From: Mesorhizobium sp.
GTDB lineage: Bacteria; Pseudomonadota; Alphaproteobacteria; Rhizobiales; Rhizobiaceae
DNA length: 57,514 bases
Reading direction: 5' to 3'
NCBI GenBank assembly: GCA_022833215.1
Contig: JAIPUZ010000056.1
Coordinates: 1 to 57,514, forward strand
Shown here: positions 9,626 to 56,489 of the stretch, piece after piece
Layout: each line of letters starts with the position of its first letter
How positions within the stretch are numbered: position 1 is the stretch's first letter
The notes under the pieces: model-generated
Told to the model about the DNA's origin: nothing
The model's database searches: none
The model's input: the letters and a program-made list of their open reading frames with translations, nothing else
Position numbers and translations under genes: made by a program

Positions 9626-11143
<1,518 letters not shown>

Positions 11144-36489: not shown

Positions 36490-36496
36490 AATCATC

Positions 36497-37903
36497 ATGC
36501 AGGACCAGCTTCTGACCAACCGCACCTTCGACCAGCTTCAGATCGGCGACAGCGCCTCCATCGTGCGTGTCGTTGGCCGCGACGACATCGAACTGTTCGC
36601 GACCGTTTCCGGCGATGTGAACCCGGTGCATCTCGACGCAGCCTTCGCCTCGACCGATTTTTTCGGCCATATCGTCGCCCACGGCATGTGGACAGGCGCT
36701 CTGGTCTCCTCTGTCCTCGGCACCCGGTTGCCCGGTCCCGGCACGATCTATCTCGGGCAGGAATTGCATTTTCTCAAACCCGTTGTGCCCGGCGATACCA
36801 TCACCGCCAGCGCAACCGTGAAGGAGAAACGGCCTGCCGGGCGCATCGTGCTGCTCGACACCATCTGCACCAACCAGAAAGGCGAGGAAGTGCTTTCCGG
36901 AATCGCGACTGTCGTGGCGCCGGACCGGACCATAAAATGGCCGGCCGCGAAGCTGCCCGACGTCTCGTTGCGGAGGCATGAGCGCTACGAGGCTTTCGTG
37001 CGCGAGGCGAGAAACCTGCCTTCGATCCGTGCGGCGATCGTGCATCCCTGCTCGGCCGCCGCCATTCTGGGCGCGGTCGAAGTGCGCGACGAAGGTCTGT
37101 TCGAGCCATTGCTGATCGGTCCGGAGGCGAAGATCCGTGCGGCGGCGGAAGCCGCCGGGGCTGATCTTTCCGGCATAGCCATCGAGCCGGTCGAGCATAG
37201 CCATGCAGCGGCAACGCGCGCGGTCGAACTGGCCGTGGCCGGCAAGGTTTCCGTTCTGGTCAAGGGCAGCCTGCATTCGGACGAACTGCTGGGGGCCGTG
37301 GTGGCGAAGGATTCCGGCCTGCGGACCGAGCGGCGCATCAGCCATGCCTATGGCATGGATATCCCCGCCTATTCCAAGCCGCTGATCATTACCGACGCCG
37401 CCATCAATATCCAGCCGACTCTGGAGCAGAAACGCGATATCTGCCAGAACGCCATTGATCTGCTGCATATACTGGGCGTCGAGACGCCGCGCGTCGCCGT
37501 TCTGGCAGCGGTAGAGACGGTCAACCCAAAAATGCAGGTGACGCTCGATGCCGCCGCCCTCACCGTGATGGCGGCACGCGGCCAGATCACCGGGGCGAAG
37601 GTGGACGGCCCGCTTGCCTTCGACAACGCCATCAGCATGGATGCGGCAAGGACCAAGGGCATCGTGTCCGATGTCGCCGGTCAGGCCGACATCCTGCTCA
37701 CCCCCGATCTGGAATCGGGTAACATGCTGGCCAAGCAGCTCATTCATTTCGCCGGCGCGACGGCGGCCGGGCTGGTGCTTGGCGCCCGCGTTCCGATCGT
37801 GCTGACGAGCCGGTCCGATCCGCTCAGCGCCCGCATCGCGTCGGCGGCTCTTGCCAAGCTTGTCGCGGCCAGAAAGTCTCTCGCGGGGAAGCTGCCGGCA
37901 TGA
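36497..37903 (+). CDS. Fused MaoC-like enoyl-CoA hydratase / phosphate acetyl(butyryl)transferase
   Basis: 468 aa two-domain enzyme. Residues ~1-145 are a MaoC hotdog domain with the hydratase motif DVNPVHLD and FGHIVAHGM; residues ~165-465 are a PTA/PTB domain (AIVHPCSAAAILGAVE, KGSLHSDELLGAVV, ITDAAINIQPTLEQK). The phosphotransferase half makes acyl-phosphate from acyl-CoA, to be used by the acetate kinase encoded next; the hydratase half handles enoyl-/(R)-3-hydroxyacyl-CoA and could feed the PHA synthase. ATG 36497 is 7 nt after the phaC stop; the 3' end overlaps ackA by ATGA. Confidence 0.92.
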   Translation: MQDQLLTNRTFDQLQIGDSASIVRVVGRDDIELFATVSGDVNPVHLDAAFASTDFFGHIVAHGMWTGALVSSVLGTRLPGPGTIYLGQELHFLKPVVPGDTITASATVKEKRPAGRIVLLDTICTNQKGEEVLSGIATVVAPDRTIKWPAAKLPDVSLRRHERYEAFVREARNLPSIRAAIVHPCSAAAILGAVEVRDEGLFEPLLIGPEAKIRAAAEAAGADLSGIAIEPVEHSHAAATRAVELAVAGKVSVLVKGSLHSDELLGAVVAKDSGLRTERRISHAYGMDIPAYSKPLIITDAAINIQPTLEQKRDICQNAIDLLHILGVETPRVAVLAAVETVNPKMQVTLDAAALTVMAARGQITGAKVDGPLAFDNAISMDAARTKGIVSDVAGQADILLTPDLESGNMLAKQLIHFAGATAAGLVLGARVPIVLTSRSDPLSARIASAALAKLVAARKSLAGKLPA

Positions 37904-39087
37904 GCCAGAAAATGCTTGTAACCTTCAATGCCGGCTCATCGACAGTGAAGATCGGCCTGTTCGCGCTCGATCAGGGCAAGGCCCGGCGTATCGGCAAGGG
38001 CATGATCGATTTCCGCAAGGCCCCGCTTCGCTTCGAGCTGTCCGAAGGGCCAGACCGTTTCGACGTGGAGCTCAAGGCCCCTCCTGGAGGTGAACTGGAC
38101 GAGGTTCTGGGCGAAGCCTTCGAACGGCTGTCATGGCATTACGACCTCGACGATGTCGCCGCCATCGGCCACCGCGTCGTGCATGGCGGCGATCTGTTCA
38201 CCGATCCTGTCGCGGTCGACGGGGAAAGCCTTGCGCGCATGGAGGAGCTGGTGGCGCTCGCGCCCCTCCACCAGCCGCAGGCGCTGAGGCTTATCTACGC
38301 CATCGCCCGGCTGCGGCCCGGCATAAGGCAGACAGCGTCCTTCGACACCGCCTTCCATCGCACCAATGCTGAAATCGTACAGCGTTTCGCCCTGCCGCGC
38401 GAGCTGCACGATCAGGGCATCAGGCGCTACGGTTTCCATGGCCTGTCCTACAAGTTCATTGCCGCGGAGCTGGCGCGGCGCGATGCGAAGGCGGCATCGG
38501 GCAAGGTTGTCGCCGCCCACCTCGGTTCGGGGGCCAGCCTGTGCGGGCTGGACAACGGCATCAGCCGCGACACCAGCATGGGCTTTTCCACGCTCGACGG
38601 TGTCCCGATGGCAACCCGCTGCGGCGCGCTGGACGCGGGCGTGCTTCTGCATCTCATGGGTGCCGGCGGACGCACACTGGATGACGTCGAGGACATTCTT
38701 TACAACCGTTCCGGCCTGCTTGGCCTGTCCGGTATCAGCGCCGACAGCCGCGTGCTGCTGGAGAGCGACAGGCCACAGGCGCGCGAAGCGATCGAGGTCT
38801 TCACCTTCCGCATCGCCGGCGAGATCGCCCGTCTGGCCGCCACGCTCGGCGGGCTCGACGCCATCGTCTTTACCGCCGGCGTGGGCGAGCATCAGCCCGC
38901 CGTGCGCGCCGATATCTGCAAACGGCTGGAATGGCTTGGCGTCGATATCGACCGGATTGCGAACGCGGCCAATGCAACTTCCATCGGCAGCGAGAGAAGC
39001 CGTGTTTCCGTCTTCGTCATCCCGACCGATGAGGAACAGGTGATCGCTGACGAGGCCCTGTCCATCGCCAACGGCGCCCGCCCCTGA
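37900..39087 (+). CDS. ackA: Acetate kinase (acetate/butyrate/propionate kinase family)
   Basis: 395 aa acetokinase. Motifs: NAGSSTVKIGLF at the N-terminus, FDTAFHRT, RYGFHGLSYKFI, AHLGSGASLCGLDNG, DTSMGFSTLDGVPMATRCG and FTAGVGEHQ near the C-terminus. Converts acyl-phosphate and ADP to the acid and ATP, or the reverse. Translationally coupled to the MaoC-Pta gene. Confidence 0.95.
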   Translation: MSQKMLVTFNAGSSTVKIGLFALDQGKARRIGKGMIDFRKAPLRFELSEGPDRFDVELKAPPGGELDEVLGEAFERLSWHYDLDDVAAIGHRVVHGGDLFTDPVAVDGESLARMEELVALAPLHQPQALRLIYAIARLRPGIRQTASFDTAFHRTNAEIVQRFALPRELHDQGIRRYGFHGLSYKFIAAELARRDAKAASGKVVAAHLGSGASLCGLDNGISRDTSMGFSTLDGVPMATRCGALDAGVLLHLMGAGGRTLDDVEDILYNRSGLLGLSGISADSRVLLESDRPQAREAIEVFTFRIAGEIARLAATLGGLDAIVFTAGVGEHQPAVRADICKRLEWLGVDIDRIANAANATSIGSERSRVSVFVIPTDEEQVIADEALSIANGARP

Positions 39088-40740: not shown

Positions 40741-41520
40741 TTATCTTTCCTGCAGGCGTGCAAGCGCCTGTGCGTGCAGGGATTCGTCGCCAGCGGCGAT
40801 GACACGTCCCCTCCAGTCCAGATCGAGCGGCGCACCCTGCCAGTCCGTCACGATCCCGCCCGCCCCTTCTATGATGGCGGTCGGGGCAAACAGATCGTAG
40901 GTGTCGAAGCCGGCGTCGACAGCCAGATCGGTGCGCCCACGGGCAAGGCATGCATAGGCATAACAGCTGCCGCCATATTGCGTGAACCGCACGGCCTCAT
41001 CCAGACGGCTGAAGGGGACGCGATCGGGCTCCGGTATGAAGCGGGGGTTCGACGAGGTCATGTAGGCATCGGCAAGCGCAGTGCCCTTGCGGCACCGGGT
41101 CGGGGAACCGTTGTACCAGGCACCGCGACCGGAAATGCCCGTGGCGCGCTCGCCGGTTGCCGGAAGATCGATGACGCCGGTCAGCGGGCGGCCGCCCCGC
41201 GCCACCGAGATCAGCGTGCCGTAGACGGGAATGCCCGCAATCCAGGCAGCGGTGCCGTCTATCGGATCGAGCACCCATACGAACTCGGCGTCGAGTTGCT
41301 CGGAGCCATGCTCTTCGCCCTGAATGCCATGATCGGGAAAGGCGGACCGGATTTCCTCGCGCAGCCGCGCTTCCACGGAACGGTCGGTGGCGGTGACGAA
41401 GCTGGCATCCTCCTTGAGGTCGATGCGCAGCGCGTCCCGGGTGGCGGCCTGAAGCATGGCGCGCGAGAGGTCGGCCAGTTTTTCGGAAAAAGCCAGGAGG
41501 GTTTCGGCAATGTCTGTCAT
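40741..41520 (-). CDS. Inositol-monophosphatase family phosphatase (histidinol-phosphatase HisN type)
   Basis: 259 aa Mg-dependent phosphatase of the IMPase fold: GEEHG, the DPIDGTAAW motif with the two metal-binding Asp residues, and the C-terminal segment DLFAPTAIIEGAGG. The family includes inositol monophosphatase and the histidinol-phosphatase of alphaproteobacteria; the sequence and length suit the latter. It directly follows the ABC ATPase gene on the minus strand (8 nt), perhaps as part of that operon, although the functional link is unclear. Confidence 0.85.
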   Translation of the reverse strand: MTDIAETLLAFSEKLADLSRAMLQAATRDALRIDLKEDASFVTATDRSVEARLREEIRSAFPDHGIQGEEHGSEQLDAEFVWVLDPIDGTAAWIAGIPVYGTLISVARGGRPLTGVIDLPATGERATGISGRGAWYNGSPTRCRKGTALADAYMTSSNPRFIPEPDRVPFSRLDEAVRFTQYGGSCYAYACLARGRTDLAVDAGFDTYDLFAPTAIIEGAGGIVTDWQGAPLDLDWRGRVIAAGDESLHAQALARLQER

Positions 41521-41528
41521 GTGAGGTC

Positions 41529-42266
41529 TCAATGCGCCAGGATCTGGCCGAGGAAGGCTTTCGCGCGTTCTGTGCGGGGCGATGCGAAGAAATCCAGCGG
41601 GACCGCTGTCTCGATGATCTCGCCATTGTCCATGAAGACGATGCGATCGGCGACCGACCTTGCGAATCCCATCTCGTGGGTCACGCAGATCATGGTCATG
41701 CCCTCGCGCGCCAGATCGGTCATGACGTCCAGCACCTCGGAGATCATTTCCGGATCGAGCGCGGACGTGGGTTCGTCGAACAGCATCACCTTGGGGTTCA
41801 TGCAGAGCGCCCGCGCAATCGCCACGCGTTGCTGCTGTCCGCCTGAAAGCTGCGAGGGATATTTGTTCGCCTGGTCCGGGATGCGCACGCGCGTCAGATA
41901 CTTCATGGCGATCTCTTCCGCTTCCGGGCGCGACTTGCCGTGTACGAGCCGTGGCGCCAGCGTCAGGTTCTGCAGAATGGTCATGTGCGGAAAGAGATTG
42001 AAGCTCTGGAACACCATGCCGACTTCGCGCCGGATTGTTTCCACTTTCTTCTCGTCGTCGGACAGTTCGAGCCCGTTGACCGAGATGCGGCCGCTGTCGT
42101 GCTCTTCCAGCCGGTTGATGCAGCGGATCATGGTCGATTTGCCCGAGCCGGAAGGCCCGCAGACCACCACCTTCTCACCCTTGGCGATGGAGAGATTAAC
42201 GTCTCTCAGCGCCTGGTAGGTGCCGTAATACTTGTTCACATTTTCCAGAACGATGATGTCGGTCAT
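41529..42266 (-). CDS. Polar amino acid ABC transporter, ATP-binding protein
   Basis: 245 aa GlnQ/HisP-type ATPase: Walker [10 protein letters not shown], signature LSGGQQQRV, Walker [13 protein letters not shown] and [13 protein letters not shown] 42266 ([10 protein letters not shown]) is the family start; longer frames are arginine-rich leaders. With two permeases and a binding protein upstream it forms the second amino-acid importer of the window. Confidence 0.95.
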
Positions 42267-42270
42267 GGTG

Positions 42271-42963
42271 CTAGCCCTTCCTGACATGACGGTTCGCATA
42301 TGTCTCCGCCATCGAGAATGCCGTTTGTATGATCCAGACGAGCACCAGATAGATGATCGTGGCTGCAATGAAGATTTCGTAGGGCGCGAAGGTATTTGCC
42401 ACGATGGTGCGGGCGACGCCGGTCATTTCCATCAGGGTCACGGTGGAAGCGAGCGCCGTCGATTTCAGCATCGAGACGATCTCGTTGCTGTAGGCCGGCA
42501 GAGCCAGCCGGACCGCCAGCGGCGCGGTGATGCGGGTGGCGCGCTGGAACCTGGTGAGGCCAAGCGCCTTGCCGGCTTCCGTCAGCCCCTTGTCCACGCC
42601 CATAACGCCGCCGCGCAGGATTTCGGACACATAGGCCGCCGTGTTCAGCGAAAGGGCGATGACCGAACACCAGTATGGCTCGCGAAGAAGCGGCCACAGG
42701 ACGCTCTGCCGCACGAAGCCGAACTGGGGCAGGCCGTAGTAGATGATGAAGAGCTGAACCAGCAGCGGTGTGCCGCGAAAGAAATATATGTAGGCTTTGG
42801 CTGGCCACACCAGCCATGACCGGCCGGAGAGCCGCATCAGCAGGATCAGGACGGCCAGCATCAGGCCGAGAAGGGTTGAAACCGCAAGCAGGTTCAGCGT
42901 CAGGCCGAGACCCTGCAGGATTCGTGGCAGGCTGCTGCCGATCAGGGAGATGTCGAAGCTCAT
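42271..42963 (-). CDS. Polar amino acid ABC transporter, permease
   Basis: 230 aa permease of the HisM/HisQ family with about five helices and the EAA loop [20 protein letters not shown]. It overlaps the preceding permease gene by 4 nt (42960-42963), so both are translationally coupled. Confidence 0.94.
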
Positions 42964-43655
42964 CGTGCGCCCCGCACATGGCGGTTGGCCCGAACCTCAA
43001 GCTGCCCGACGGCCCAGGTGATCACCGTCGTCATGGCCAGATAGATGATCGCCACGATCACATAGAGCGTGAAGGGACGGTGCAGCACCGAATTGGCCAT
43101 CTTGGCGACAAAGAGAATCTCCTCCAGCCCGATGATGGAAATAAGGGCCGTGTCCTTCATGATCGAAAGCATGTGATTGCCGAAGTTGGGCAGCGCCAGC
43201 CGCCACATCTGCGGAATGCGCACATACCAGAACACCTGATGCGGTTTCAGGCTCAGCGCTCTTGCGGCTTCTATCTGTCCGCGGTCCACTCCCAGAAAAG
43301 CACCGCGGAATGTTTCGGTCATATAGGCGCCGACGATAAGCCCGATCGCTATGGATCCTGCCCAGAAGGGCGGCAGATCCACGAACTGGACGGAAGGGTC
43401 GAAAAGCCTTGCGATCCAGGTCAGGGTGAGGGCCATGCCGAAATAGAACAGCAGCAACACCAGCAGTTCGGGCGTGCCACGAAAGACCACCGTATAGCCC
43501 TGAGCCACGGTGCGCAGGACGCGGCTGCCCGAAAGCTTCGCCGAGGCCCCCAGAAGGCCCAGCGCCACCGCCAGTACCAGTGCCACGGCAAATATCCGCA
43601 GCACCATCAGCAGTCCGAAAAAGAAGTCGTCCCACCACCCGCTCAGCAGCGACAT
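42960..43655 (-). CDS. Polar amino acid ABC transporter, permease
   Basis: 231 aa HisM/HisQ-family permease; EAA loop ALSLKPHQVFWYVRIPQMWR and the usual amphipathic N-terminus (MSLLSGWWDDFFFGLLMVLR). Together with the next gene it forms the heterodimeric channel. It lies 61 nt downstream of the binding-protein gene, with a strong hairpin between. Confidence 0.94.
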   Translation of the reverse strand: MSLLSGWWDDFFFGLLMVLRIFAVALVLAVALGLLGASAKLSGSRVLRTVAQGYTVVFRGTPELLVLLLFYFGMALTLTWIARLFDPSVQFVDLPPFWAGSIAIGLIVGAYMTETFRGAFLGVDRGQIEAARALSLKPHQVFWYVRIPQMWRLALPNFGNHMLSIMKDTALISIIGLEEILFVAKMANSVLHRPFTLYVIVAIIYLAMTTVITWAVGQLEVRANRHVRGAR

Positions 43656-43676
43656 GCAATACCTCCCCCGCTTTCA

Positions 43677-43703
43677 CGGGCACCGCTTTCGACGCGGTGC
43701 CCG
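43677..43703 (-). promoter_or_regulatory. Intercistronic hairpin between binding protein and permease genes
   Basis: Perfect 10-bp arms CGGGCACCGC / GCGGTGCCCG with a 7-nt loop, in the 61-nt gap. No T-run. Same position as the hairpin at 4466-4491 in the other importer; a likely mRNA-stability element that sets binding-protein excess. Confidence 0.6.
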
Positions 43704-43716
43704 CAGGCCCCGTTGA

Positions 43717-44523
43717 TCAGTCGACTCCCTTCCAGTTTTCAGGCTGGATGGAGAAGGGGAAGTATTTGAGACTGTACTCTTCGAGCGACCCGTCCTTGAT
43801 CATGTCGGCGAGCGCGGTGTTGATGCGCTCCAGCAGCGCATCGTTGCCCTTGCGCAGGCCCACGCCGACGCCCGGACCGAAATACTCGACCTCGTCGATC
43901 GGCGGCGACACGAACTCGAAACCGGCGCCGTTCTCCTTGCTCAGAAAATCGAGATAGGCCTTCATCGGGTTTGTGATGGCTATGTCCAGCCTGCTGCTCT
44001 GCAGATCGAGCAGCATGGACAGGTTGCCGTCGTAGTAGACGACTTCCGCGCCCGGAAGCGTCGCTTCGATCCATTTTGCATAGGTGGAAGCGCGCTCGAC
44101 ACCAAAGCGCAGACCCTTGAAGGCTTCGGGAATGGGCTTGCCCTCATCGTCGAACAGCTTGAGGTCGGCGCTTTTCGAGCCGAGGATGCGGCCCACCGAC
44201 ACGCGATAGGGGATCGAGAAGTCGATTTTCTGCTGGCGCTCCTCGGTGATGGACATGGACGCGACGATCAGGTCGAATTTGTTGGCCAGAAGCGAGGGGA
44301 GCATGCCGTCCCATTCCTGACAGACGTAGTTGAGTTCAACGCCGATGCGCTCGGCTATGCCCTTCGCGACATCCACGTCGTAGCCCGCCATCTCGCCTTC
44401 GGGCGTGCGGTAATTAAAGGGAGCATAGGTGCACTCCATTCCCACCCGCAGCGTTTCGGCGTGAACGGGCGCGGCGAGCAGCAGCGCGGCAACAGTGGAT
44501 AGCAGACCGACCCTGAAATTCAT
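43717..44523 (-). CDS. Amino acid ABC transporter substrate-binding protein
   Basis: 268 aa family-3 binding protein. Signal peptide about residues 1-22 (MNFRVGLLSTVAALLLAAPVHA). The mature part has TLRVGMECTYAPFNYR, GYDVDVAKGIAERIG and the DGMLPSLLANKFDLIVASMS region shared with lysine/arginine/ornithine/histidine-type proteins. First gene of the minus-strand importer operon, divergent from an aminotransferase across 191 bp that must hold both promoters. Confidence 0.94.
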   Translation of the reverse strand: MNFRVGLLSTVAALLLAAPVHAETLRVGMECTYAPFNYRTPEGEMAGYDVDVAKGIAERIGVELNYVCQEWDGMLPSLLANKFDLIVASMSITEERQQKIDFSIPYRVSVGRILGSKSADLKLFDDEGKPIPEAFKGLRFGVERASTYAKWIEATLPGAEVVYYDGNLSMLLDLQSSRLDIAITNPMKAYLDFLSKENGAGFEFVSPPIDEVEYFGPGVGVGLRKGNDALLERINTALADMIKDGSLEEYSLKYFPFSIQPENWKGVD

Positions 44524-44714
44524 CTTCTTGATCCCCGTATCTTTGTTCTTTGGCTATCGTTTTTGCGACGCCTCCGACGTCGATCCCGCATCGATACGCC
44601 CATGCCGGAAAGGAGAATATCCTCCCAAGGGATGATGGATGCCATCGGCCTCGGGGTGGATGGCGAACCGCGCATTTGAGGCATAGCCATTCACCGAACT
44701 GGTCCCGGAGGAGA

Positions 44715-45833
44715 ATGACCGTGAACTACGTCCGCATGCCAATCGAGCTCGAGTCGCCGGAGCAGCTCGGCTATGACACCATCCGGTACAATCTGTCTGA
44801 AAGCTCCGTCGCCGATCGCCGGCTGGGCGATCTCAACCTGAAGCTCGACGATATCCTGCTGTGTTACGGTGACCATCGCGGCTCACCGGACCTGCGCAAC
44901 CTGATCGCGGCCTCGGGCGACGGGCTGTCGGCCGATGACGTGCTGGTGACCGCGGGAGCGGCCGGCGCGCTGTTCATCATTGCGACATCGATGCTCGATC
45001 GAAGCGACCACATCGTCGTGGTGCGGCCCAACTATGCCACCAATATCGAGACGCCGCGCGCCATCGGATGCCGGATCAGCCTCATCGACCTGGAGTTCGA
45101 GAATGGCTTCCGGCTCGATCTGCCCAAGATCGAGGCAGCGATAGAACCGGGCACGAAATATGTGTCGGTGACCTATCCGCACAATCCGACCGGTGTCATG
45201 ATCTCGGAAGAAGAACTCCGGGCCCTGGCGGACCTTGTGGAGCGCAAGGGTATCCATCTGCTCTTCGACGAAACCTATCGGGAGATGAGTTTCGGGCCGG
45301 TGCTGCCCGTCGCCGCCACCCTGTCGAAACGGGTCATCAGCGTGTCGTCGCTTTCCAAGACCTACGGCATTCCGGGCATCCGCACAGGATGGCTCATCAG
45401 CCGCGATCCCGAACTGATGGAGCTGTTTCTTGCCGCCCGCGAGCAGATCGGCATTTCCGGCAGCACGGTCGATGAATACATCGCCTACGTCGCGCTCAGC
45501 CGGCGCGAGGAATGGCTTCGTTTCAACAACGCCCGCATCGCCAGCGCCTTTGCGATCGTGAAGGAGTGGATCGCTTCGGAGCCGCTGGTGGAGTGGATCG
45601 AGCCATCGGGCGGCTGCGTCTGCTTTCCCCGCATCGCGAGTTCCGCGAATATCGATGTGGCGGGCTTTCACCGGCGTCTCTATCACGACCACGGAGCCTA
45701 TGTCGGGCGCGGGCGCTGGTTCGAGCAGGACGACCGTCACTTCCGCATAGGCTACGCATGGCCGGACGAGGATGAATTGCGCGGAGGACTGGCCGCGATA
45801 TCGGCGGCGCTTCGCGAAAGCATCAAAGGCTGA
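44715..45833 (+). CDS. PLP-dependent aminotransferase, class I/II fold
   Basis: 372 aa fold-type I enzyme. PLP lysine in SSLSKTYGIPG, PLP-phosphate arginine in GIRTGW, Asp ligand in LLFDETYREM and HNPTG (PHNPTGVM). The subgroup has a short N-terminus without a clear family name; aspartate-type aminotransferases are normally ~390-400 aa, so it is somewhat short. ATG 44715 follows a GGAGGAG. Divergent from the importer and tail-to-tail (11-bp overlap) with the LuxR gene. A second enzyme of the same length is encoded at 47792. Substrate unknown. Confidence 0.9.
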   Translation: MTVNYVRMPIELESPEQLGYDTIRYNLSESSVADRRLGDLNLKLDDILLCYGDHRGSPDLRNLIAASGDGLSADDVLVTAGAAGALFIIATSMLDRSDHIVVVRPNYATNIETPRAIGCRISLIDLEFENGFRLDLPKIEAAIEPGTKYVSVTYPHNPTGVMISEEELRALADLVERKGIHLLFDETYREMSFGPVLPVAATLSKRVISVSSLSKTYGIPGIRTGWLISRDPELMELFLAAREQIGISGSTVDEYIAYVALSRREEWLRFNNARIASAFAIVKEWIASEPLVEWIEPSGGCVCFPRIASSANIDVAGFHRRLYHDHGAYVGRGRWFEQDDRHFRIGYAWPDEDELRGGLAAISAALRESIKG

Positions 45834-46644
45834 GGCTTTTCAGGAAGGTGGAGAACAGTTCCTGCTGGGTCGAAAGGTTCAGCTTGGCATAGAGCTTCTG
45901 GCGATGGGTCTTCACCGTCGTCGTCGAGATGCCGAGGTGATATCCGATGGATTCGCTGGAATGTCCTTTCAGGATGAGCAGAGCGACTTCCCGCTCCCTC
46001 GGACTGAGCAGCCCGTGCCCGAAGCTGGAAAACAGATGATCGATGGGCCGGGACTGAGGGCTTGGCCTCGCGGGCGAAAGATGCGCCCACAGCCGCCGGA
46101 AGATCGAGGCGATCAGGGGGTGAGCCTGCCGCAAGCCCGCAATCGATGCCTCGTCGAAACCGCCCTCGCTGCGGATGCGCGACAGGCTGATCTCGGCCAT
46201 CTCGTCACCGGGAAGGTCGATGGCCAGGATCAGCTCCTCCAGACCTTCCGGCCATCCATGGGTGCGATAGCCCAGCTCTTCGTCCTCGTGCCGGCGAATG
46301 TCGAGGTTGCGATAAAGGTCGGAGTGGAAATAGTGGTCGGGCGCGAGATCGCGGATCAGATAGACGCCGGGTTTCAGGCCATCGAGGTAGGAGTTGTAGA
46401 CCGGGTTCAGGGCATAGGTCCCGGCAACATAGAGCTCGACGGCGCGTTTGGCGCGCGGGCCGGAAAACGTGTCGAAGACATAGCTTGGGCCCCCGGTTCG
46501 CCGATAGACGACCGACAACGCAAGCTGAAATCCGGCGACCGATCCTATCGCCGCAAGCAGGGCCTTTATCCCGTCGGGTTGATCATGCCGGTCGAAAGCA
46601 TGTGCGAACGGTTCTATCCAGCGGTCGGTCGATGTTTCGGACAT
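45823..46644 (-). CDS. LuxR family transcriptional regulator
   Basis: 273 aa: an N-terminal ~200-residue domain without a motif I recognise and a C-terminal GerE HTH (LSPREREVALLILKGHSSESIGYHLGISTTTVKTHRQKLY). ATG 46644 (MSETSTDRW) is chosen from the domain limits. The N-terminus is not obviously an acyl-homoserine-lactone domain and no LuxI homologue lies in the window, so it may be a solo sensor of a nutrient. A 25-bp dyad stands just upstream of its start. Convergent with the first aminotransferase, divergent from the OCD-family gene. Confidence 0.88.
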   Translation of the reverse strand: MSETSTDRWIEPFAHAFDRHDQPDGIKALLAAIGSVAGFQLALSVVYRRTGGPSYVFDTFSGPRAKRAVELYVAGTYALNPVYNSYLDGLKPGVYLIRDLAPDHYFHSDLYRNLDIRRHEDEELGYRTHGWPEGLEELILAIDLPGDEMAEISLSRIRSEGGFDEASIAGLRQAHPLIASIFRRLWAHLSPARPSPQSRPIDHLFSSFGHGLLSPREREVALLILKGHSSESIGYHLGISTTTVKTHRQKLYAKLNLSTQQELFSTFLKSLSL

Positions 46645-46663
46645 GGCCTGTATGGGGTTGGCT

Positions 46664-46688
46664 GTTGCGCAGCCGGTCTCTGCGCAAC
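46664..46688. promoter_or_regulatory. 25-bp dyad GTTGCGCAG-N7-CTGCGCAAC upstream of the luxR-type gene
   Basis: Perfect 9-bp arms, 20-44 bp from the luxR-type ATG. Best candidate for an autoregulatory operator in the divergent 188-bp gap. Confidence 0.65.
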
Positions 46689-46757
46689 TGCGATCCGAAA
46701 CTTTCTGACACAGATTTTCCGGCCGCGTCCAGTCCCGGCTGTGCCCGCCTCGCAGGT

Positions 46758-46773
46758 CCACCCTGGGGTGGAT
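46758..46773. promoter_or_regulatory. 16-bp palindrome TCCACCC-TG-GGGTGGA upstream of the OCD-family gene
   Basis: Perfect 7-bp arms, 60-75 bp upstream of the OCD-family ATG, a suitable place for an activator site. Differs from the 46664-46688 dyad. Confidence 0.55.
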
Positions 46774-46832
46774 AGCGCAACCGGCAGGCCCGTGCATGAT
46801 GGCCTGCGTAAATTCCGTGAAAGGCCCTCCTG

Positions 46833-47795
46833 ATGACGATTCCCCCTCCCCTGATTCTGGACGCGGCTGCCGTCGGCAGGCTCCTCCCGCAGGTGGATGC
46901 CCTTGGCACGATGCGCTCCCTGTTCTCCGAGCTGGGACGCGGCCGTGCGGTGCAGCCGGCGCAGACCCTCACGCTCTTTCCCGATGGCGGCGGGGATTTC
47001 ATCCTCTATTCGGGTGTGCTGGCAAGGCAGGGCGTGTTCGGCGCCAAGCTCTCTCCCTACATCCCGACCGAGGGACGTCCGATCGTTACGGCGTGGACGC
47101 TGCTGATGTCGACCGAAACCGGACAGCCGCTGCTGTTGTGCGATTCAGCCACGCTCACCACAGAGCGGACCGCCGCGACCACGGCGCTGGCGGTCGATCT
47201 GCTGGCGCGGCCGCAGGCACGGCGTCTCGCCATTTTCGGCAGCGGGCCGGTGGCGGCCGCCCATCTGCATCATCTCGTGGGCCTGCGCGACTGGACCGAT
47301 ATCCGCATCTTCTCGCCGCGGCTCGCCGCCAACGCCGACCGCCGCAGGGCCCTGCAGGTGGACCCGCGAATCGCCTTCCCGGAAACGGCCGCAGAATGCG
47401 CCACCGGAGCGGATGTGATTGCGCTTGCAACATCTTCGGGCAAGCCGGTCATCGATCCCGCTTGTATCGGGCAGGACACGCTTGTGACTTCCATAAGCAC
47501 CAACGCCATGGAGGCGCATGAGGTGCCCCCGGCCTTCCTGCATGACGCTCAGGTCTATTGCGACAATCGCGCCACGACACCCGCCAGCGCGGGAGAAATG
47601 GTGATCGCCCGGCGCGAGCGTGGATGGGACGCTGAAGCCATACGCGGCGATCTCGCCGGGCTGTGCTGTGGAGACTGCCCGCTGCCCGAGGAAGGGCGCC
47701 CCGTCTTCTTCCGGTCCATAGGTCTGGGACTGGAGGATGTGGCCATCGCGCATGCACTTTGGACGGTTGCACGAGAGGAAAGAGAAAAAGCATGA
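46833..47795 (+). CDS. Ornithine cyclodeaminase / mu-crystallin family protein, divergent catalytic loop
   Basis: 320 aa OCD-family protein with Rossmann site LAIFGSGPVAAAH and the KLSPYIPTEGRP substrate region. At the place where the family usually has a GxDxPGKxEL loop it reads TSISTNAMEAHEV, so the aspartate used by ornithine cyclodeaminases is missing; a reductase or dehydrogenase role is more likely than cyclodeamination. The second aminotransferase follows with an ATGA overlap (47792-47795), meaning the two products act together, for example imine reduction coupled to transamination (inference). Confidence 0.87.
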   Translation: MTIPPPLILDAAAVGRLLPQVDALGTMRSLFSELGRGRAVQPAQTLTLFPDGGGDFILYSGVLARQGVFGAKLSPYIPTEGRPIVTAWTLLMSTETGQPLLLCDSATLTTERTAATTALAVDLLARPQARRLAIFGSGPVAAAHLHHLVGLRDWTDIRIFSPRLAANADRRRALQVDPRIAFPETAAECATGADVIALATSSGKPVIDPACIGQDTLVTSISTNAMEAHEVPPAFLHDAQVYCDNRATTPASAGEMVIARRERGWDAEAIRGDLAGLCCGDCPLPEEGRPVFFRSIGLGLEDVAIAHALWTVAREEREKA

Positions 47796-48910
47796 AGATC
47801 AGGGAATTCGGCGTCGAAATATGGATGAACGCCTACGAGAACGACGCAAAATACAACCTTGCGGAAACCTGCGTCCACTCGCTTACCATTTCGGAACTGC
47901 TGAAGCTCTCGGGGCGCAATGACGAGGCGCTTGCCGAGTTGCTGCCCATGTGGATGGGTTATGGCGACATCGAAGGCTCCGACAGGCTGAAAGACGCCAT
48001 CTGCAATCTTTATGAGAAGCAGAAGCGCGACAATGTCATCGTCACCCATGGAACGATCGGCGCGAACCACCTCGTCCATTCGGCGCTGGTCCGGCCGGGC
48101 GATGTGGTGGTTTCCATCGTGCCGACCTATCAGCAGCACTATTCGATTCCGGAAAGCTGTCTGGCGGAAGTACGGCTCGTCTGGCTCAAGCCCGAAAACG
48201 ACTTCCTGCCCGACCTTGCGGAGCTTGCAGAGGCTGCAAGGGGGGCGAAGCTGATTGCCCTCACCAACCCCAACAACCCGACGGGCGCGCTGATCGACCG
48301 TGCCGGGCTGGAAGCGATCGCCGCCATTGCCCGTGCAGAAGGCGCATGGGTGCTGTGCGACGAGGTCTACCGGGGCATAGATCAGGAGGGCGACGGTTTC
48401 ACCCCGTCCATGTGCGACCTTTACGAGAAAGGCATTTCGACCTGTGGCATGTCGAAGGCCTACTCGCTTGCAGGACTGCGCCTGGGGTGGGTTGCGGGTC
48501 CGGAAGAGATCATCAGGGCGGTCTCGGTCCATCGCGACTATACGACGATCAGCGTCGGCCGGATCGACGACCATTTTGCTGCCCTTGCCCTTGAAAACAG
48601 CGAGCGGGTTCTGGGGCGCAGCCGCAGGATCACCCGCGCCAACCTGGCCATTCTCGATGCGTGGGTCGCCGGGGAACCGCGCATCAGCTATGTGCGGCCG
48701 AAGTCGGGCACCACGGCCTTTCTTCGCTACGATCTCGACATGCCTTCAGCCGAACTGTGCCGGACCTTGCAGGAGCGGACGGGCGTGATGCTCCTGCCCG
48801 GCTCGACGCTCGACATGGAAGGCTGGCTGCGCATCGGCTATGCCTGCGATACGGAGGTGCTGAAAAAGGGCCTTGCCCTGTTCTCGGAGTTCCTCGCCAG
48901 ACCGGATTGA
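47792..48910 (+). CDS. PLP-dependent aminotransferase, class I/II fold
   Basis: 372 aa, the same length and subgroup as the enzyme encoded at 44715-45833. PLP lysine in CGMSKAYSLAGLRLGW, Asp ligand in LCDEVYRGI, NPNNPTG, and a short N-terminus with EIWMNAYENDAKYNLAE. Translationally coupled to the OCD-family gene. The two paralogous enzymes and the reductase-like protein form a small, unassigned amino-acid pathway with the importer next door. Confidence 0.9.
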   Translation: MKIREFGVEIWMNAYENDAKYNLAETCVHSLTISELLKLSGRNDEALAELLPMWMGYGDIEGSDRLKDAICNLYEKQKRDNVIVTHGTIGANHLVHSALVRPGDVVVSIVPTYQQHYSIPESCLAEVRLVWLKPENDFLPDLAELAEAARGAKLIALTNPNNPTGALIDRAGLEAIAAIARAEGAWVLCDEVYRGIDQEGDGFTPSMCDLYEKGISTCGMSKAYSLAGLRLGWVAGPEEIIRAVSVHRDYTTISVGRIDDHFAALALENSERVLGRSRRITRANLAILDAWVAGEPRISYVRPKSGTTAFLRYDLDMPSAELCRTLQERTGVMLLPGSTLDMEGWLRIGYACDTEVLKKGLALFSEFLARPD

Positions 48911-49032: not shown

Positions 49033-50466
49033 TTACAGGGAGGAATAGGGAACGAAGGTGCTCCTCGTCTCATCGATGCGCAGCGCCTGGGTTACCGGCG
49101 GAAAGGCACGCTGCGGACATGAAGGCCGCTCGCAGATCTTGCACCCTGCCCCGATCGGCGTCCGGGCCTCGGCGTCATCCAGCCGCAGACCCTTGGAATA
49201 GACCAGCGACGGTGCGTGCTGGAGATCGCAGCCAAGCCCGATGGCGAATGTCTTGTCCGGTGTGCCGTAGCCTCCGACCGTGTGGTCGACGGTGCGCGCC
49301 ACCCACAGATAGGTGCGCCCGTCAGGCATTTCGGCAAGCTGGGTGACGATGCGTCCCGGCCGGGTGAATGCCTCATAGACGTTCCACAGGGGGCATGTGC
49401 CCCCTGCCCTCGAGAAATGGAAATCGGTAGCCGACTGGCGCTTGGATATGTTGCCTGCCCGGTCCACGCGGATGAAGAAGAAGGGTACGCCGCGCGCGCC
49501 CGGCCGCTGCAACGTGCTCAGCCGGTGGCAGACGGTCTCGAAGCCGACGCCGAACGTCTGGCCGAGCAGATCGATGTCGTAGCGCAGTTCCTTTGCCGAT
49601 TGCAGGAAGGCGGCGTAAGGCAGGACCAGTGCGCCGGCGAAATAGTTGGCAAGGCCGATGCGGGCGAGCGCCCGGGTTTCGGCATTGGAAAAGAACGCTT
49701 CCGCCAGCTCCGCTTCGATCAGCCTGCCATATTCGAGGAAAGCCAGTTGGGTGGCCATCTGGAATGCCTGCTGGCCGCCGCTCAGCCGTTCAGAAAGCCG
49801 CAGAGCCCGCGTCTCCGGTTCGAAAGCGCGCTGGACGCCGGACCCGGTCGCCTGCGCATGGCGAAGCACCCGCACGCCATGCTTCCCGGCGAGATATGCC
49901 TCCAGAGCCGGAACCATACGGCCCGGGGTAAGGCCGAGCGCGGCCGCAGCCGCCTCGGCAGCCCGGTCGAGCGTATCGATGTGGTTGTGCCGTGAGTAGA
50001 AGAAGTCCCGCACCTCTTCGAATGGCGCGGCGGCGACAGGCGAGAGCCCCTGCCCACTGTCGCCCATCCGGTTGTCACCCAGCCGTGCGGCCAGAGCGGC
50101 CGACTGCTCCAGAGCGCGCGCCAGACGCTTGTGCAGCCCGACGATGGCGCGCCCCACCGCCGGCATGCCGGTGGCGATTTCCTTCATCTCGGCGCTTGAA
50201 ATCTCCTCCCCTATCCCCGGATCGAACAGCGCCTCGCGAAGCTCGCCCACCAGCCGGGCCTCGTCCTCGCCGGAAAACAGCTGCACGTCGACGCCGAAGG
50301 CGGCGTTGAGTTTCAGCAGCACCGCAACGGTGAGCGGACGCTGGTTGTTCTCGATCTGGTTAAGGTAGCTCAGCGAAATGCCAATGGCGTCTGCCAGCGC
50401 CTGCTGGGTGAGCTGGCGCTCCTCCCGCAGTCGCTTCAACCGCACGCCCATAAACAGCTTTTTCAC
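49033..50466 (-). CDS. XRE-family / short-chain fatty acyl (ScfR/PrpR-type) regulator of the methylcitrate genes
   Basis: 477 aa: N-terminal XRE HTH (residues ~8-62; QALADAIGISLSYLNQIENN), a central IrrE/ImmA-like domain in which the peptidase HExxH is not intact (FLEYGRLIEAE), and a C-terminal DUF2083-type domain with conserved cysteines (GGTCPLW, GCDLQHA, GCKICERPSCPQRA). This is the RamB/ScfR/MccR-like architecture known to control propionate and acetate metabolism. It is divergent from the thioesterase-prpDCB operon, with TTTGCAAA motifs between, as for RamB targets. Likely senses an acyl-CoA or methylcitrate-type metabolite (inference). Confidence 0.92.
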   Translation of the reverse strand: MKKLFMGVRLKRLREERQLTQQALADAIGISLSYLNQIENNQRPLTVAVLLKLNAAFGVDVQLFSGEDEARLVGELREALFDPGIGEEISSAEMKEIATGMPAVGRAIVGLHKRLARALEQSAALAARLGDNRMGDSGQGLSPVAAAPFEEVRDFFYSRHNHIDTLDRAAEAAAAALGLTPGRMVPALEAYLAGKHGVRVLRHAQATGSGVQRAFEPETRALRLSERLSGGQQAFQMATQLAFLEYGRLIEAELAEAFFSNAETRALARIGLANYFAGALVLPYAAFLQSAKELRYDIDLLGQTFGVGFETVCHRLSTLQRPGARGVPFFFIRVDRAGNISKRQSATDFHFSRAGGTCPLWNVYEAFTRPGRIVTQLAEMPDGRTYLWVARTVDHTVGGYGTPDKTFAIGLGCDLQHAPSLVYSKGLRLDDAEARTPIGAGCKICERPSCPQRAFPPVTQALRIDETRSTFVPYSSL

Positions 50467-50489
50467 GGCGTCCCCCTCGCCTCACAATC

Positions 50490-50587
50490 TTCGCAAACTT
50501 TGCAAATTCACCGATCTTGCTTTGCAAATGTCTGCATTTTCAGTGGTTTACGATTTTCAACATATGCGGATATTGCGGATTAGCAAA
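50490..50587. promoter_or_regulatory. TTTGCAAA repeats in the divergent prp control region
   Basis: Perfect TTTGCAAA palindromes at 50499-50506 and 50521-50528, 22 bp apart (two helical turns), with related TTCGCAAA at 50490 and TTAGCAAA at 50580. This matches the core recognised by RamB/ScfR-type XRE regulators (TTTGCAAA-like). Between regulator ATG (50466) and thioesterase ATG (50620). Confidence 0.8.
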
Positions 50588-50619
50588 GAGGCTCTCGAGC
50601 CAAGGAGCACGTTTCAGGA

Positions 50620-51030
50620 ATGCCGGAGGAACTTTCCCTGCAAAGCGATGCGCGCTTCAGCGAACTGGTCCTGCCTGCGCTGACAAATCACTACGGCACC
50701 CTTTATGGCGCCAATGCGCTGCATCTCATGGGGAAGACCGCATTCCTGTGCGCTTCGCGTCATGCCGGGTGCGATGTGGTCATGGCAAAGGCCGACGGCA
50801 TCGAATTCCACCGTCCGGTCAGGCTGGGCGAGATCATCGACATCAGCGCCCGCATCGTCTTTCGCGGTCGTTCCTCCATGACCGTTCTGGTCAACGCCTT
50901 CACCGAAGACAACGGTGAAAAGACCCCCGCCGTCAGCGGCCATTTCATGATGGTCGCCGTCGATGGCGGCGGCAGGCCGACCCCCCTCCCAACTTCCGAT
51001 CAATGCAACACAGAGGATATTCATTCGTGA
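50620..51030 (+). CDS. Acyl-CoA thioesterase, hotdog fold
   Basis: 136 aa 4HBT/YciA-type hotdog protein. [23 protein letters not shown] is the N-terminal active-site region typical of acyl-CoA thioesterases, with the helix-forming [13 protein letters not shown] following. First gene of the prp operon; it probably hydrolyses propionyl- or a related acyl-CoA to relieve CoA trapping. Its stop overlaps the prpD start (GTGA). Confidence 0.88.
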
Positions 51031-52541
51031 AGTCGCATAAGGTCCGTACCTACAAATCCGCCGAGAACCTGGTCCGCGAGGACCAGCTCGCCTGGAAGAT
51101 CGCCTCGATCGCCGCAGACAACGTCGCGCTCGACGCCGATGTGGTCGAGATGATCGGCAACCGCATCATCGACAATGCCGCCGTCGCCGCCGCATCGCTG
51201 GCCCGCCGCCCGGTGGCGAGCGCCCGGGCGCAGGCACAGGCTCATCCCTTCCTGCCGGGCGCCACGGTGTTCGGACTTTCCACCGCCAAGCGCGTGTCGC
51301 CGGAATGGGCCGCATGGGCCAACGGCGTGGCGGTGCGCGAACTTGACTTCCACGACACCTTCCTCGCTGCCGACTATTCGCACCCGGGCGACAACATCCC
51401 GCCGATCCTTGCCGTGGCTCAGCATTGCGGCCTGTCGGGTGCGGCGCTCGCCAGGGGCATCGCCACCGGCTACGAAGTGCAGGTCAATCTCGTCAAGGGC
51501 ATCTGCCTGCACGAGCATAAGATCGACCACATCGCCCATCTCGGCCCCTCGGCCGCCGCTGGCATCGGCACGGCGCTCGGCCTTTCCGCCGAAGTGATCT
51601 ATCAGGCCGTGCAGCAGGCGCTGCATGTCACCACCACCACACGCCAGTCGCGCAAGGGCGAGATTTCGAGCTGGAAAGCCTATGCCCCGGCCTTCGCCGG
51701 CAAGATGGCCGTCGAGGCGGTGGACCGCGTGCTGCGCGGCGAAGGTGCCCCCTCCCCCGCTTGGGAAGGCGAGGACGGTTTCATCGCCTGGCTGCTCTCG
51801 GGCCCGAAGGCCGAATATGTCGTGCCGCTGCCCGAAAAGGGCGAAGCCAAGCGCGCCATCATGGACACCTACACCAAGGAGCATTCAGCCGAATACCAGA
51901 GCCAGGCGCTCATCGACCTTGCGCGCCGCATGGGGCCGAAGATCGGCGACCTCAAAAAGGTGAAGGATATCGTCATCCACACCAGCCATCACACCCACTA
52001 CGTGATCGGCACCGGCGCCAACGACCCGCAGAAGATGGACCCGAAGGCGAGCCGCGAAACGCTCGATCACTCGATCATGTACATCTTCGCCGTGGCTCTG
52101 GAGGACGGCGGCTGGCACCACGAGCGCTCCTATGCGCCCGAACGCGCCAACCGGCCGGAAACGGTGGCCCTTTGGCACAGGATCTCCACCGTGGAGGACC
52201 CTGAGTGGACGCGCCGCTACCACAGCCATGACCCGAAGGAAAAGGCGTTCGGTGGCCGCGTTGTCGTCACCCTACAGGACGGCTCGGTCATCGAGGACGA
52301 ACTGGCGATTGCCGACGCGCATCCGCTGGGCGCCCGTCCCTTCTCCCGCCCCGACTATGTCAACAAGTTCCGGACGTTGGCAGAGGGCGTCGTGGAAAAG
52401 GCCGAGCAGGACCGCTTCATCGCCACCGTCGAGCGCCTGCTGGAGCTGAAGCCGGAAGAACTATCCGGCCTCACCTTCACGGTCGCGCAGGACAAGCTCG
52501 GCCCGGCCGCCGCCACCGGCATTTTCGACTGGAAGAGGTAG
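51027..52541 (+). CDS. prpD: 2-methylcitrate dehydratase
   Basis: 504 aa MmgE/PrpD-family enzyme that dehydrates 2-methylcitrate to 2-methylaconitate in propionate breakdown. Typical motifs: [36 protein letters not shown], and [20 protein letters not shown] 51027 is preferred: the stop of the thioesterase overlaps it, GAGG lies about 11 nt upstream, and [15 protein letters not shown] is the family N-terminus; ATG 51003 is an alternative. Confidence 0.95.
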
Positions 52542-52551
52542 GGAGGAACCC

Positions 52552-53718
52552 ATGAGCGCTTTCAAGCCCAAGAAGTCCGTTGCCCTCTCCGGCGTCGTTG
52601 CCGGCAATACGGCGCTGTGCACCGTCGGGCGCACCGGAAACGATCTCCACTATCGCGGCTACGATATTCTTGACGTGGCCGAAACCTGCGAGTTCGAGGA
52701 GATTGCCCATCTCCTCGTCCACGGCGCGCTGCCGACGCAGGCCGAGCTTGCCGCCTACAAGGCGAAGCTGAAGGCCCTGCGCGGGCTGCCGGATGCGGTG
52801 AAGCGCACGCTGGAGTTGTTGCCGGCGGCCACCCACCCGATGGACGTGATGCGCTCCGGCGTCTCCGCTCTCGGCTGCGTGCTGCCGGAGGCGACGGACC
52901 ACAACCTGCCCGGCGCGCGCGACATCGCCGACCGGCTGATGGCGTCGCTCGGCTCGATGCTGCTCTACTGGCATCACTACGCCCATAACGGGCGGCGCAT
53001 CGAGGTCGAAACCGACGACGACTCCATCGGCGGCCACTTCCTCCACCTTCTGCACGGCAAGGCCCCGAAAGCCTCGCATGTCAAGGCGATGCACATCTCG
53101 CTGATCCTCTATGCGGAACACGAGTTCAACGCCTCGACCTTCACCGGCCGCATGATCGCCGGCACCGGCTCGGACGTGTACTCGGCCATCACCGGAGCCA
53201 TCGGCGCGCTGCGCGGGCCGAAGCACGGCGGGGCCAACGAGGTCGCTTTCGAGATTCAGAAGCGCTATGCCGATCCGGACGAGGCGGAAGCCGACATCCG
53301 CCGCCGCGTCGAGGAAAAGCAAGTCGTCATCGGCTTCGGTCACCCGGTCTATACGGTGAGCGACCCGCGCAACAAGGTCATCAAGACCGTGGCGCGCCAG
53401 ATCTCCGTCGAGGCCGGATCGACGAAGATGTTCGACATTGCCGAGCGCATCGAATCCACCATGGCCGATGCCAAGGCGATGTTCCCGAACCTCGACTGGT
53501 TCAGCGCCGTCTCCTATCACATGATGGGCGTGCCGACGGCCATGTTCACGCCGCTGTTCGTCATCTCGCGCACCAGCGGCTGGGCGGCGCATATCATCGA
53601 GCAGCGCATCGACAACAAGATCATCCGGCCTTCCGCCAATTATACGGGGCCGGAGAATCAGGAATTCGTGCCGATCGAACGCCGCGGCCGGCCCGTAGAA
53701 AACTCCAAGGCAGCCTGA
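52552..53718 (+). CDS. prpC: 2-methylcitrate synthase / citrate synthase
   Basis: 388 aa citrate-synthase-family enzyme. Histidine and aspartate active-site regions are visible ([22 protein letters not shown], and the C-terminal segment with the catalytic Asp in [13 protein letters not shown]). Condenses propionyl-CoA with oxaloacetate. GGGAGGAA precedes the ATG. The position between prpD and prpB identifies it as PrpC rather than the TCA enzyme. Confidence 0.95.
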
Positions 53719-53726
53719 GGAAAAGC

Positions 53727-55155: not shown

Positions 55156-55209
55156 CACGGTTGTTTGGAAAAACATCTCCAAAAATCGTTATTAGGAAAT
55201 GCAGCCCGA

Positions 55210-56418: not shown

Positions 56419-56489
56419 TCTTGCCAGCCGACAAAATCACGGTTTCACCTTTTTCCTTCAATGGATTAGGCAAGGAAGGGAGCTGTTAG

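What the first reader, a model, noticed from the sequence alone, without database searches (positions are those of the whole stretch)
41529..48910. Unassigned amino-acid pathway: importer, two same-length aminotransferases, reductase-like OCD homologue, LuxR regulator
Seen: a complete polar-amino-acid ABC importer (four genes), two class I/II PLP enzymes of identical length (372 aa each) with similar short N-termini, an OCD-family protein coupled by ATGA overlap to one of them, and a LuxR-type regulator in between. The OCD-family protein lacks the usual GxDxPGK catalytic loop. I do not know a described pathway with two paralogous aminotransferases and an OCD-like reductase. Hypothesis: import and interconversion of an unusual amino acid (perhaps guanidino-, D- or cyclic), with imine reduction and two transaminations. 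Alternatively the paralogues act on two enantiomers or form a heterodimer.
Basis: partly seen in the sequence, partly recalled or inferred. Interest (0 to 1): 0.72.

Follow-up and report, generated by a model that had tools for sequence, protein, structure and literature searches.

The report
Arginine-type amino acid uptake and conversion locus
A gene cluster, probably on a plasmid of a Mesorhizobium-like bacterium, that is predicted (not tested) to import an unusual arginine-like amino acid and turn it into ordinary arginine.

Summary
The "OCD-like reductase" is 58% identical to DauB, which makes L-arginine from 2-ketoarginine; lacking GxDxPGK is normal for that subfamily. PLP2 is its recurrent partner: in 30 other DauB-like loci the partner was PLP2 (16), the flavoenzyme DauA (8), a DadA-like flavoenzyme (4) or neither (2). 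PLP2 therefore most likely supplies 2-imino/2-ketoarginine. PLP1 and PLP2 (29% identical) fall in the clade of GntC, OrfR and VioD, which dehydrate and cyclise hydroxyarginines; both keep that clade's N-terminal Glu, PLP1 also its Ser-Ser pair. Their equal length is coincidence. PLP1 belongs to a second block (HisN-like phosphatase, importer, PLP1, LuxR). A ~22-bp candidate operator marks the importer/PLP1 promoter and, in other bacteria, LuxR-linked PLP2 or OCD-PLP2 promoters; the copy before OCD here is weak. Best model: a substituted arginine is imported, PLP2 makes the imine, OCD reduces it to L-arginine. The substrate is unproven and D-arginine is a serious rival. Canavanine looks unlikely. 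New variant of a known kind.

The parts
40741..41532 (-). HisN-like inositol-monophosphatase family phosphatase, overlaps the ABC ATPase gene
   Evidence: PF00459 165 bits; NCBIfam HisN 251.9 bits, below its 275.15 cutoff; occurs with the importer in both blocks
41529..42368 (-). ABC importer ATPase, polar/basic amino acid type (probable start near 42266)
42271..42963 (-). ABC permease (ArtM/HisM type)
42960..43655 (-). ABC permease (HisQ/ArtQ type)
43717..44523 (-). Substrate-binding protein, lysine/arginine/ornithine-histidine type
   Evidence: 186.5 bits to TIGR01096 (below its cutoff of 256.35); best PDB matches are cationic amino acid, histidine and LAO binding proteins
44618..44639 (+). 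Candidate LuxR operator, site 1, in the SBP/PLP1 divergent promoter
   Evidence: PWM 26.8, best hit of the window with a matrix built without window sites
44643..44664 (+). Candidate LuxR operator, site 2
   Evidence: PWM 19.1
44715..45833 (+). PLP1: fold-type I PLP enzyme nearest to GntC/3OP7/OrfR
45823..46644 (-). LuxR/GerE-type regulator, convergent with PLP1, divergent from OCD
   Evidence: PF00196; homologues beside PLP1 or OCD-PLP2
46755..46776 (+). Candidate LuxR operator, weak copy, in the LuxR/OCD intergenic region
   Evidence: PWM 15.2; 0.0007 expected in 190 bp of random sequence, but unrelated places of the window score higher (16.7 at 10852, 16.3 at 53925)
46833..47795 (+). DauB-like 2-keto/iminoarginine reductase (OCD/mu-crystallin family)
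   Evidence: 58% to P. aeruginosa DauB; 341 bits to PDB 8J1C; SISTN..AHE loop as in DauB and 10 other DauB-like relatives checked
47792..48910 (+). PLP2: fold-type I PLP enzyme, NCBIfam PRK07324, ATGA-coupled to OCD
   Evidence: 496.6 bits over the 476 cutoff; with DauB-like OCD in 16 of 30 other loci

Best explanation
The locus takes up a guanidino (arginine-type) amino acid and converts it to L-arginine. Step 1 (inferred): the ABC importer, of the lysine/arginine/ornithine-histidine type, brings it in. Step 2 (inferred): PLP2 binds the arginine-type side chain with its N-terminal Glu9 and turns the substrate into 2-iminoarginine/2-ketoarginine, most likely by eliminating a beta or gamma substituent (for example the OH of a hydroxyarginine), as the characterised relatives do before they cyclise. 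Chemically, loss of water from hydroxyarginine gives a tautomer of 2-iminoarginine, the compound the DauB route handles. Step 3 (family function known in Pseudomonas, inferred here): the DauB-like OCD protein reduces it with NAD(P)H to L-arginine. PLP1 acts in the same regulon on a related arginine-type substrate with the Glu/Ser-Ser active site of the arginine cyclases (inferred). The LuxR-type regulator controls importer, PLP1 and probably OCD-PLP2 through a ~22-bp near-palindrome (inferred from sequence). The logic is that proposed for hydroxyectoine (EutB dehydratase + EutC, OCD family) and described for trans-3-hydroxyproline (dehydratase + OCD-family reductase). My confidence is about 0.6 that PLP2 feeds imino/ketoarginine to OCD and about 0.3 that the substrate is a hydroxy- or otherwise substituted arginine.
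Against: The guanidinium-pocket residues of GntC (T84, H250) are not conserved in PLP1 or PLP2 (my reading of the alignments), and PLP2 has Thr-Cys for Ser-Ser. The alternative partners of DauB are D-amino-acid dehydrogenases, which fits a D-amino-acid substrate at least as well. The operator copy in front of OCD in the window is weak (15.2), and two unrelated window places score higher. One strong operator-like hit (21.1 at 41404) lies inside a coding region. L079 and L143 have a LuxR homologue but no good operator. In the nearest relative, M. composti, the locus has PLP1, LuxR and PLP2 but no OCD, so OCD is not always beside PLP2. The phosphatase has no place in the model.
Confidence: 0.45

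Rival explanations
1. D-arginine (or another basic D-amino acid) route: PLP2 is a transaminase-like replacement of the flavoenzyme DauA; it turns the D-amino acid into 2-ketoarginine, and OCD makes L-arginine. The pair inverts D- to L-arginine without a flavin enzyme.
For: PLP2 occupies the slot of DauA (8 loci) and DadA-like flavoenzymes (4 loci) beside DauB (the Caballeronia one matches the D-amino acid dehydrogenase model at 164 bits under a cutoff of 383); DauR-type regulators in 4 PLP2-type loci; AST arginine genes nearby in Enterobacter.
Against: The characterised relatives act on L-configured arginines by elimination/cyclisation (PMC10367076; OrfR was crystallised with PLP-L-Arg); I recall no fold-type I class I/II D-arginine transaminase; no transaminase co-substrate can be inferred.
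Confidence: 0.27
2. PLP2 is an O2-using L-arginine oxidase like MppP, RohP or Ind4, and OCD reduces the imine, as the imine reductase Ind5 does in indolmycin biosynthesis.
For: Such PLP enzymes make 2-ketoarginine or unsaturated/hydroxylated derivatives from L-arginine (PMC7497351, passages).
Against: None of the 60 best PDB sequence matches shown for PLP2 (of 111) bears these names; nothing in the contexts read points to a biosynthetic cluster. The role of Ind5 is recalled, not checked.
Confidence: 0.08
3. Two unrelated modules are neighbours by chance on a plasmid; PLP1+importer and OCD+PLP2 act on different compounds.
For: The blocks usually occur apart; the window contig carries repA/repB-type plasmid genes; the OCD operator is weak.
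Against: LuxR homologues (38-45% to the window's) and the same operator type go with both blocks; a HisN-like phosphatase plus same-type importer occurs with either block (Shinella L169 and L173, Ensifer L240); PLP1 and PLP2 also sit close in M. composti L069 and R. etli Mim1.
Confidence: 0.17
4. Canavanine utilisation: one of the PLP enzymes is canavanine gamma-lyase.
For: Basic amino acid importer with a PLP enzyme in Rhizobiales; a canavanine gamma-lyase pathway is known in Pseudomonadaceae and Rhizobiales (reference title seen; the paper itself is not held).
Against: Locus L217 of an unnamed relative has a B3/4 tRNA-editing gene, which PMC10018355 places beside the canavanine operon (passages), with a basic amino acid importer and a homoserine dehydrogenase (that this enzyme belongs to the pathway is recalled). 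Its PLP enzyme is of family PF01053, without meaningful similarity to PLP2 and 22% over 242 aa to PLP1. The window has no B3/4 or homoserine dehydrogenase gene beside the block; the host's stand-alone B3/4 gene lies among other genes (judged by eye). Odds raised from 0.02 to 0.03 on checking, because the link of L217 to canavanine is partly recalled.
Confidence: 0.03

Closest known systems
DauB-DauA of Pseudomonas aeruginosa (D-arginine to L-arginine)
   Same: DauB-like reductase (58%), same slot order of dauB and partner, DauR-type regulator in 4 PLP2 loci
   Different: The partner is a PLP enzyme instead of FAD DauA; LuxR regulator here; own importer
GntC (L-enduracididine cyclase), OrfR and VioD (capreomycidine-type cyclases)
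   Same: Nearest characterised fold-type I relatives, N-terminal Glu, K and R of the active site; Ser-Ser in PLP1
   Different: Roughly 30% identity or less, below the NCBIfam cutoffs; guanidinium-pocket residues T84 and H250 differ; catabolic-looking context with an importer
EutB/EutC (hydroxyectoine) and trans-3-hydroxyproline dehydratase + OCD-family reductase
   Same: Proposed or shown logic: dehydrate a hydroxylated amino acid to an imine, reduce it with an OCD-family enzyme (PMC5924519, PMC4113996, passages)
   Different: Different dehydratase families and substrates; the review itself says the EutABC conversion has not been biochemically evaluated
PRK07324 family / PDB 3OP7 (Streptococcus suis)
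   Same: PLP2 exceeds the NCBIfam cutoff (496.6 vs 476)
   Different: Named only 'aminotransferase'; I know of no assigned reaction
Canavanine gamma-lyase operon
   Same: Basic amino acid importer plus PLP enzyme in rhizobia
   Different: In L217 a PF01053 lyase, homoserine dehydrogenase and B3/4 editing protein, none of them in this block

Membership tests
DauB (anabolic L-arginine dehydrogenase) | OCD/mu-crystallin family, close sequence relation to DauB | tested here: met
   58% over 314 aa; PF02423 105 bits
DauB (anabolic L-arginine dehydrogenase) | No GxDxPGK ornithine-cyclodeaminase loop; SISTN..AHE instead | tested here: met
   window protein, DauB and 10 other DauB-like relatives share it; true OCD L001 has GxDxPGK
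DauB (anabolic L-arginine dehydrogenase) | NAD(P)H-dependent conversion of 2-ketoarginine to L-arginine | not testable with these tools
   -
DauBA system | FAD DauA as partner | tested here: not met
   PLP2 is the partner
GntC/OrfR/VioD arginine cyclases | Curated model cutoffs | tested here: not met
   GntC model: PLP1 222.7, PLP2 301.6, cutoff 415; VioD model: 204.6 and 229.9, cutoff 390.9
GntC/OrfR/VioD arginine cyclases | Conserved N-terminal Glu (GntC E9) | tested here: met
   25 of 25 PLP2 and 31 of 31 PLP1; in PLP1 a second invariant Glu two residues on leaves the register open
GntC/OrfR/VioD arginine cyclases | Consecutive Ser-Ser (GntC S25/S26) | tested here: inconclusive
   met in PLP1 (31 of 31), Thr-Cys in PLP2 (25 of 25)
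GntC/OrfR/VioD arginine cyclases | Guanidinium-pocket residues GntC T84, H250 | tested here: not met
   different residues in both, read by eye from the alignments
PRK07324 aminotransferase family | Curated cutoff | tested here: met
   PLP2 496.6 over 476; PLP1 218, not met
Canavanine gamma-lyase | Neighbouring B3/4 editing gene; lyase of the family found in locus L217 | tested here: not met
   the link of L217 to canavanine is itself partly recalled
MppP/RohP/Ind4 arginine oxidases | Close sequence relation | tested here: inconclusive
   not seen by name among the 60 of 111 (PLP2) or 60 of 124 (PLP1) PDB matches shown
HisN histidinol phosphatase | Curated cutoff | tested here: not met
   251.9 vs 275.15

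The most novel reading that the evidence does not exclude
OCD-PLP2 is a widespread, unrecognised two-enzyme dehydroxylation unit: a hydroxyarginine dehydratase from the capreomycidine/enduracididine cyclase clade plus a DauB-type imine reductase, which returns hydroxylated or substituted plant or antibiotic arginines to L-arginine. PLP1 opens or processes a second (perhaps cyclic) arginine analogue in the same LuxR regulon.
Probability: 0.25. Interest if true: 0.7.

Novelty: new variant of a known kind. Interest (0 to 1): 0.5.

Why it matters
If true, a gene pair annotated only as 'ornithine cyclodeaminase family protein' and 'aminotransferase' on plasmids of rhizobia, roseobacters, Burkholderia, Enterobacter and Pantoea is a route into arginine catabolism in which a PLP enzyme stands in for the flavoenzyme DauA. 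It would also show a nutritional role for an enzyme clade known from antibiotic and cyanotoxin biosynthesis, and point to environmental hydroxy- or D-arginines as nutrients. The question can be tested with two purified enzymes.

Tried and rejected
Canavanine gamma-lyase: disfavoured after finding a canavanine-type operon (L217) with another enzyme family. Heterodimer of PLP1 and PLP2: not supported, as 76 of 80 fetched PLP1 loci show no PLP2 in the stretch held (some stretches are short) and 15 of 16 OCD-PLP2 loci show no PLP1 (four of the 16 are stretches of about 4 kb). Mimosine degradation (because R. etli Mim1 and a Leucaena symbiont carry PLP1): one paper search, no link seen, not pursued. 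Thermoleophilia contigs with both PLP1 and PLP2 (L091, L093, L095): the genes between them, judged by eye, suggest no pathway. Structure of PLP2: model too poor (pLDDT 56.1, 4 sequences), not used. Second LuxR/cysteine-desulfurase-like unit of the host genome: gave no clue to the substrate. The binding-protein pocket shows substitutions against LAO (D11 to E, F52 to W, D161 to N, read; which residues line the LAO pocket is recalled); no ligand could be named.

Literature: the searches listed no paper that, by title and start of abstract, describes a DauB-PLP2 pair; the library holds open-licence papers only. The canavanine gamma-lyase paper (PMC9533460) is not held. Passages of PMC13188858 and PMC3187862 on EutB/EutC were seen too: in H. 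elongata eutBC deletion did not impair growth on ectoine, which does not test hydroxyectoine.
Full report
What is there. The window has the four importer genes (41529-44523, minus), PLP1 (44715-45833), a LuxR/GerE regulator (45823-46644 by its likely start, minus), the OCD-family gene (46833-47795) and PLP2 (47792-48910), with an ATGA overlap between the last two. A HisN-like phosphatase gene (40741-41532) overlaps the ATPase gene. The host is probably near Mesorhizobium: its best named PLP1 match is Mesorhizobium composti (84%), and same-genus genomes carry PLP1 at the 57-61% seen in named Mesorhizobium. The window ends in RepA/RepB-type plasmid genes, so the locus probably lies on a plasmid.

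The OCD protein. It is not an ornithine cyclodeaminase by its sequence. It is 58% identical to P. aeruginosa DauB, matches PDB 8J1C at 341 bits (I recall that entry as an L-arginine dehydrogenase, not checked), and has SISTN..AHE where a true OCD of the same genome has GGDCPGKTE. DauB itself and 10 other DauB-like relatives have the same loop. In P. aeruginosa DauA makes iminoarginine from D-arginine and DauB converts 2-ketoarginine to L-arginine (PMC5619798, passages). DauB-like genes are rare near the host: 3 of 199 genomes searched in its family at E <= 1e-40, the host included, and 11 of 398 in its phylum at E <= 1e-60, the host included, with the five best candidates per genome scored.

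Its partner. PLP2 is adjacent or nearby in 16 (Leisingera, Sulfitobacter, Shinella, Rhizobium, Agrobacterium, Ensifer, Burkholderia, Enterobacter, Pantoea and four unnamed); DauA in 8; a DadA-like flavoenzyme in 4; neither in 2; PLP2 with one of these flavoenzymes in none (the DadA label rests on the Caballeronia protein, and its homologues). The 13 records not opened are further Sulfitobacter, Caballeronia, Microvirga, Ensifer and Klebsiella plasmids. In four PLP2-type loci the regulator is DauR-like. In Enterobacter astA, astD and a succinylornithine transaminase lie upstream (with an IS5 element between) and an LAO-type binding protein downstream. In R. etli Mim1 the pair shares its region with a RidA-family gene, and Rid2/Rid3 proteins deaminate iminoarginine (the subfamily of the Mim1 protein was not tested). 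The simplest reading is that PLP2, like DauA, supplies 2-imino/2-ketoarginine, and that the product is L-arginine.

Two blocks, one regulator. Of 80 PLP1 loci kept (248 candidates had matched), 14 carry the phosphatase and all four importer genes, one more lacks only the ATPase, and 65 do not, 37 of these from records named Mesorhizobium (58-62% PLP1); some stretches are cut short by contig ends. A LuxR homologue is near PLP1 in 15 of 80. PLP2 lies nearby in 4 of 80 (L069, L091, L093, L095); in none of the 80 stretches does a match to OCD exceed 26% identity. The phosphatase and same-type importer also occur with OCD-PLP2 (Shinella L173, Ensifer L240). In M. composti a TIGR01976 cysteine-desulfurase-like gene stands where the window has OCD; the host has a 62-63% copy elsewhere beside a LuxR paralogue of 57%.

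Operator. A near-palindrome (N)ATCCNCCYNGGGGATGATGGC recurs in the SBP/PLP1 promoters of the first block and between LuxR and OCD in Leisingera and Sulfitobacter. A matrix from seven such sites, none from the window, puts its best window hit in the SBP/PLP1 promoter (26.8 at 44618), with a second there (19.1 at 44643) and a weak one in the LuxR/OCD region (15.2 at 46755; 0.0007 expected in 190 bp). 4 Mb of random sequence gave no hit at 19.1 or more; the best of 20 window-sized surrogates was 17.4. Further hits that are not training sites: SBP/PLP1 (25.3) and upstream of PLP2 (22.6) in M. composti, upstream of the cysteine-desulfurase-like gene in Shinella (22.7), upstream of PLP1 in R. etli (19.4) and Rhizobium CB3060 (15.8), and between LuxR and a PLP2 without OCD in Leisingera NJS204 (same letters as a training site). 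Eleven regions upstream of OCD or its operon with another or unidentified regulator score 6.1 or less. Against: a 21.1 hit inside the phosphatase gene (41404); unrelated window places at 10852 (16.7) and 53925 (16.3) that beat the OCD copy; loci L079 and L143 with a LuxR homologue but no good site; and a Paraburkholderia site (25.3) away from PLP1. A pattern search of the host genome found three places: the perfect one at 44619, the one in the phosphatase gene and one on another contig.

Mechanism. An elimination from hydroxyarginine yields a tautomer of 2-iminoarginine, the compound the DauB route handles; reduction gives L-arginine. This 'dehydrate, then reduce with an OCD-family enzyme' logic is proposed for 5-hydroxyectoine (PMC5924519, passages) and described for trans-3-hydroxyproline (PMC4113996, passages). 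The chemistry and the substrate here are inference. A D-arginine substrate, with PLP2 as a transaminase-like replacement of DauA, remains a serious rival, because the alternative partners of DauB are D-amino-acid dehydrogenases. Canavanine looks unlikely. The phosphatase has no assigned place in any of these models.

Verdict. A real, partly conserved locus built from two blocks. The genes are of known kinds; I saw no description of the DauB-PLP2 pairing or its operator in the listings. New variant of a known kind, interest 0.5.

Noticed in passing
window 55165-57473: RepA (ParA-like) and RepB plasmid-partition genes: the contig is probably part of a plasmid.
   Followed up: partly
window 49033-54641: A RamB/ScfR-type short-chain fatty acyl-CoA regulator gene on the minus strand, then MmgE/PrpD, citrate-synthase and PEP-mutase/isocitrate-lyase family genes: looks like a methylcitrate (propionate) cluster directly after PLP2.
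   Followed up: partly
window 5313-6284: A second OCD-family gene in the window, with the GxDxPGK loop (L003), not close to the DauB-like one.
   Followed up: no
L253 / G000:C5:107866-109095: The host has a second LuxR paralogue (57%) next to a cysteine-desulfurase-like gene, with a weak operator-like site (15.3) upstream of it.
   Followed up: partly
   Followed up: yes
L221 9150-10112: In Sulfitobacter faviae a PLP2 relative is followed by a serine/threonine-dehydratase-like enzyme (PRK06815 314.9 bits under a cutoff of 371) that also matches the EutB models below cutoff, and urease genes follow.
   Followed up: no
L178 12090-13001: In Sulfitobacter pontiacus OCD-PLP2 is followed by a dihydrodipicolinate-synthase-family gene, which might be an aldolase for a 2-oxo acid.
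   Followed up: no
window 36230-39087: MaoC/phosphate-acyltransferase fusion and acetate kinase genes side by side.
   Followed up: no
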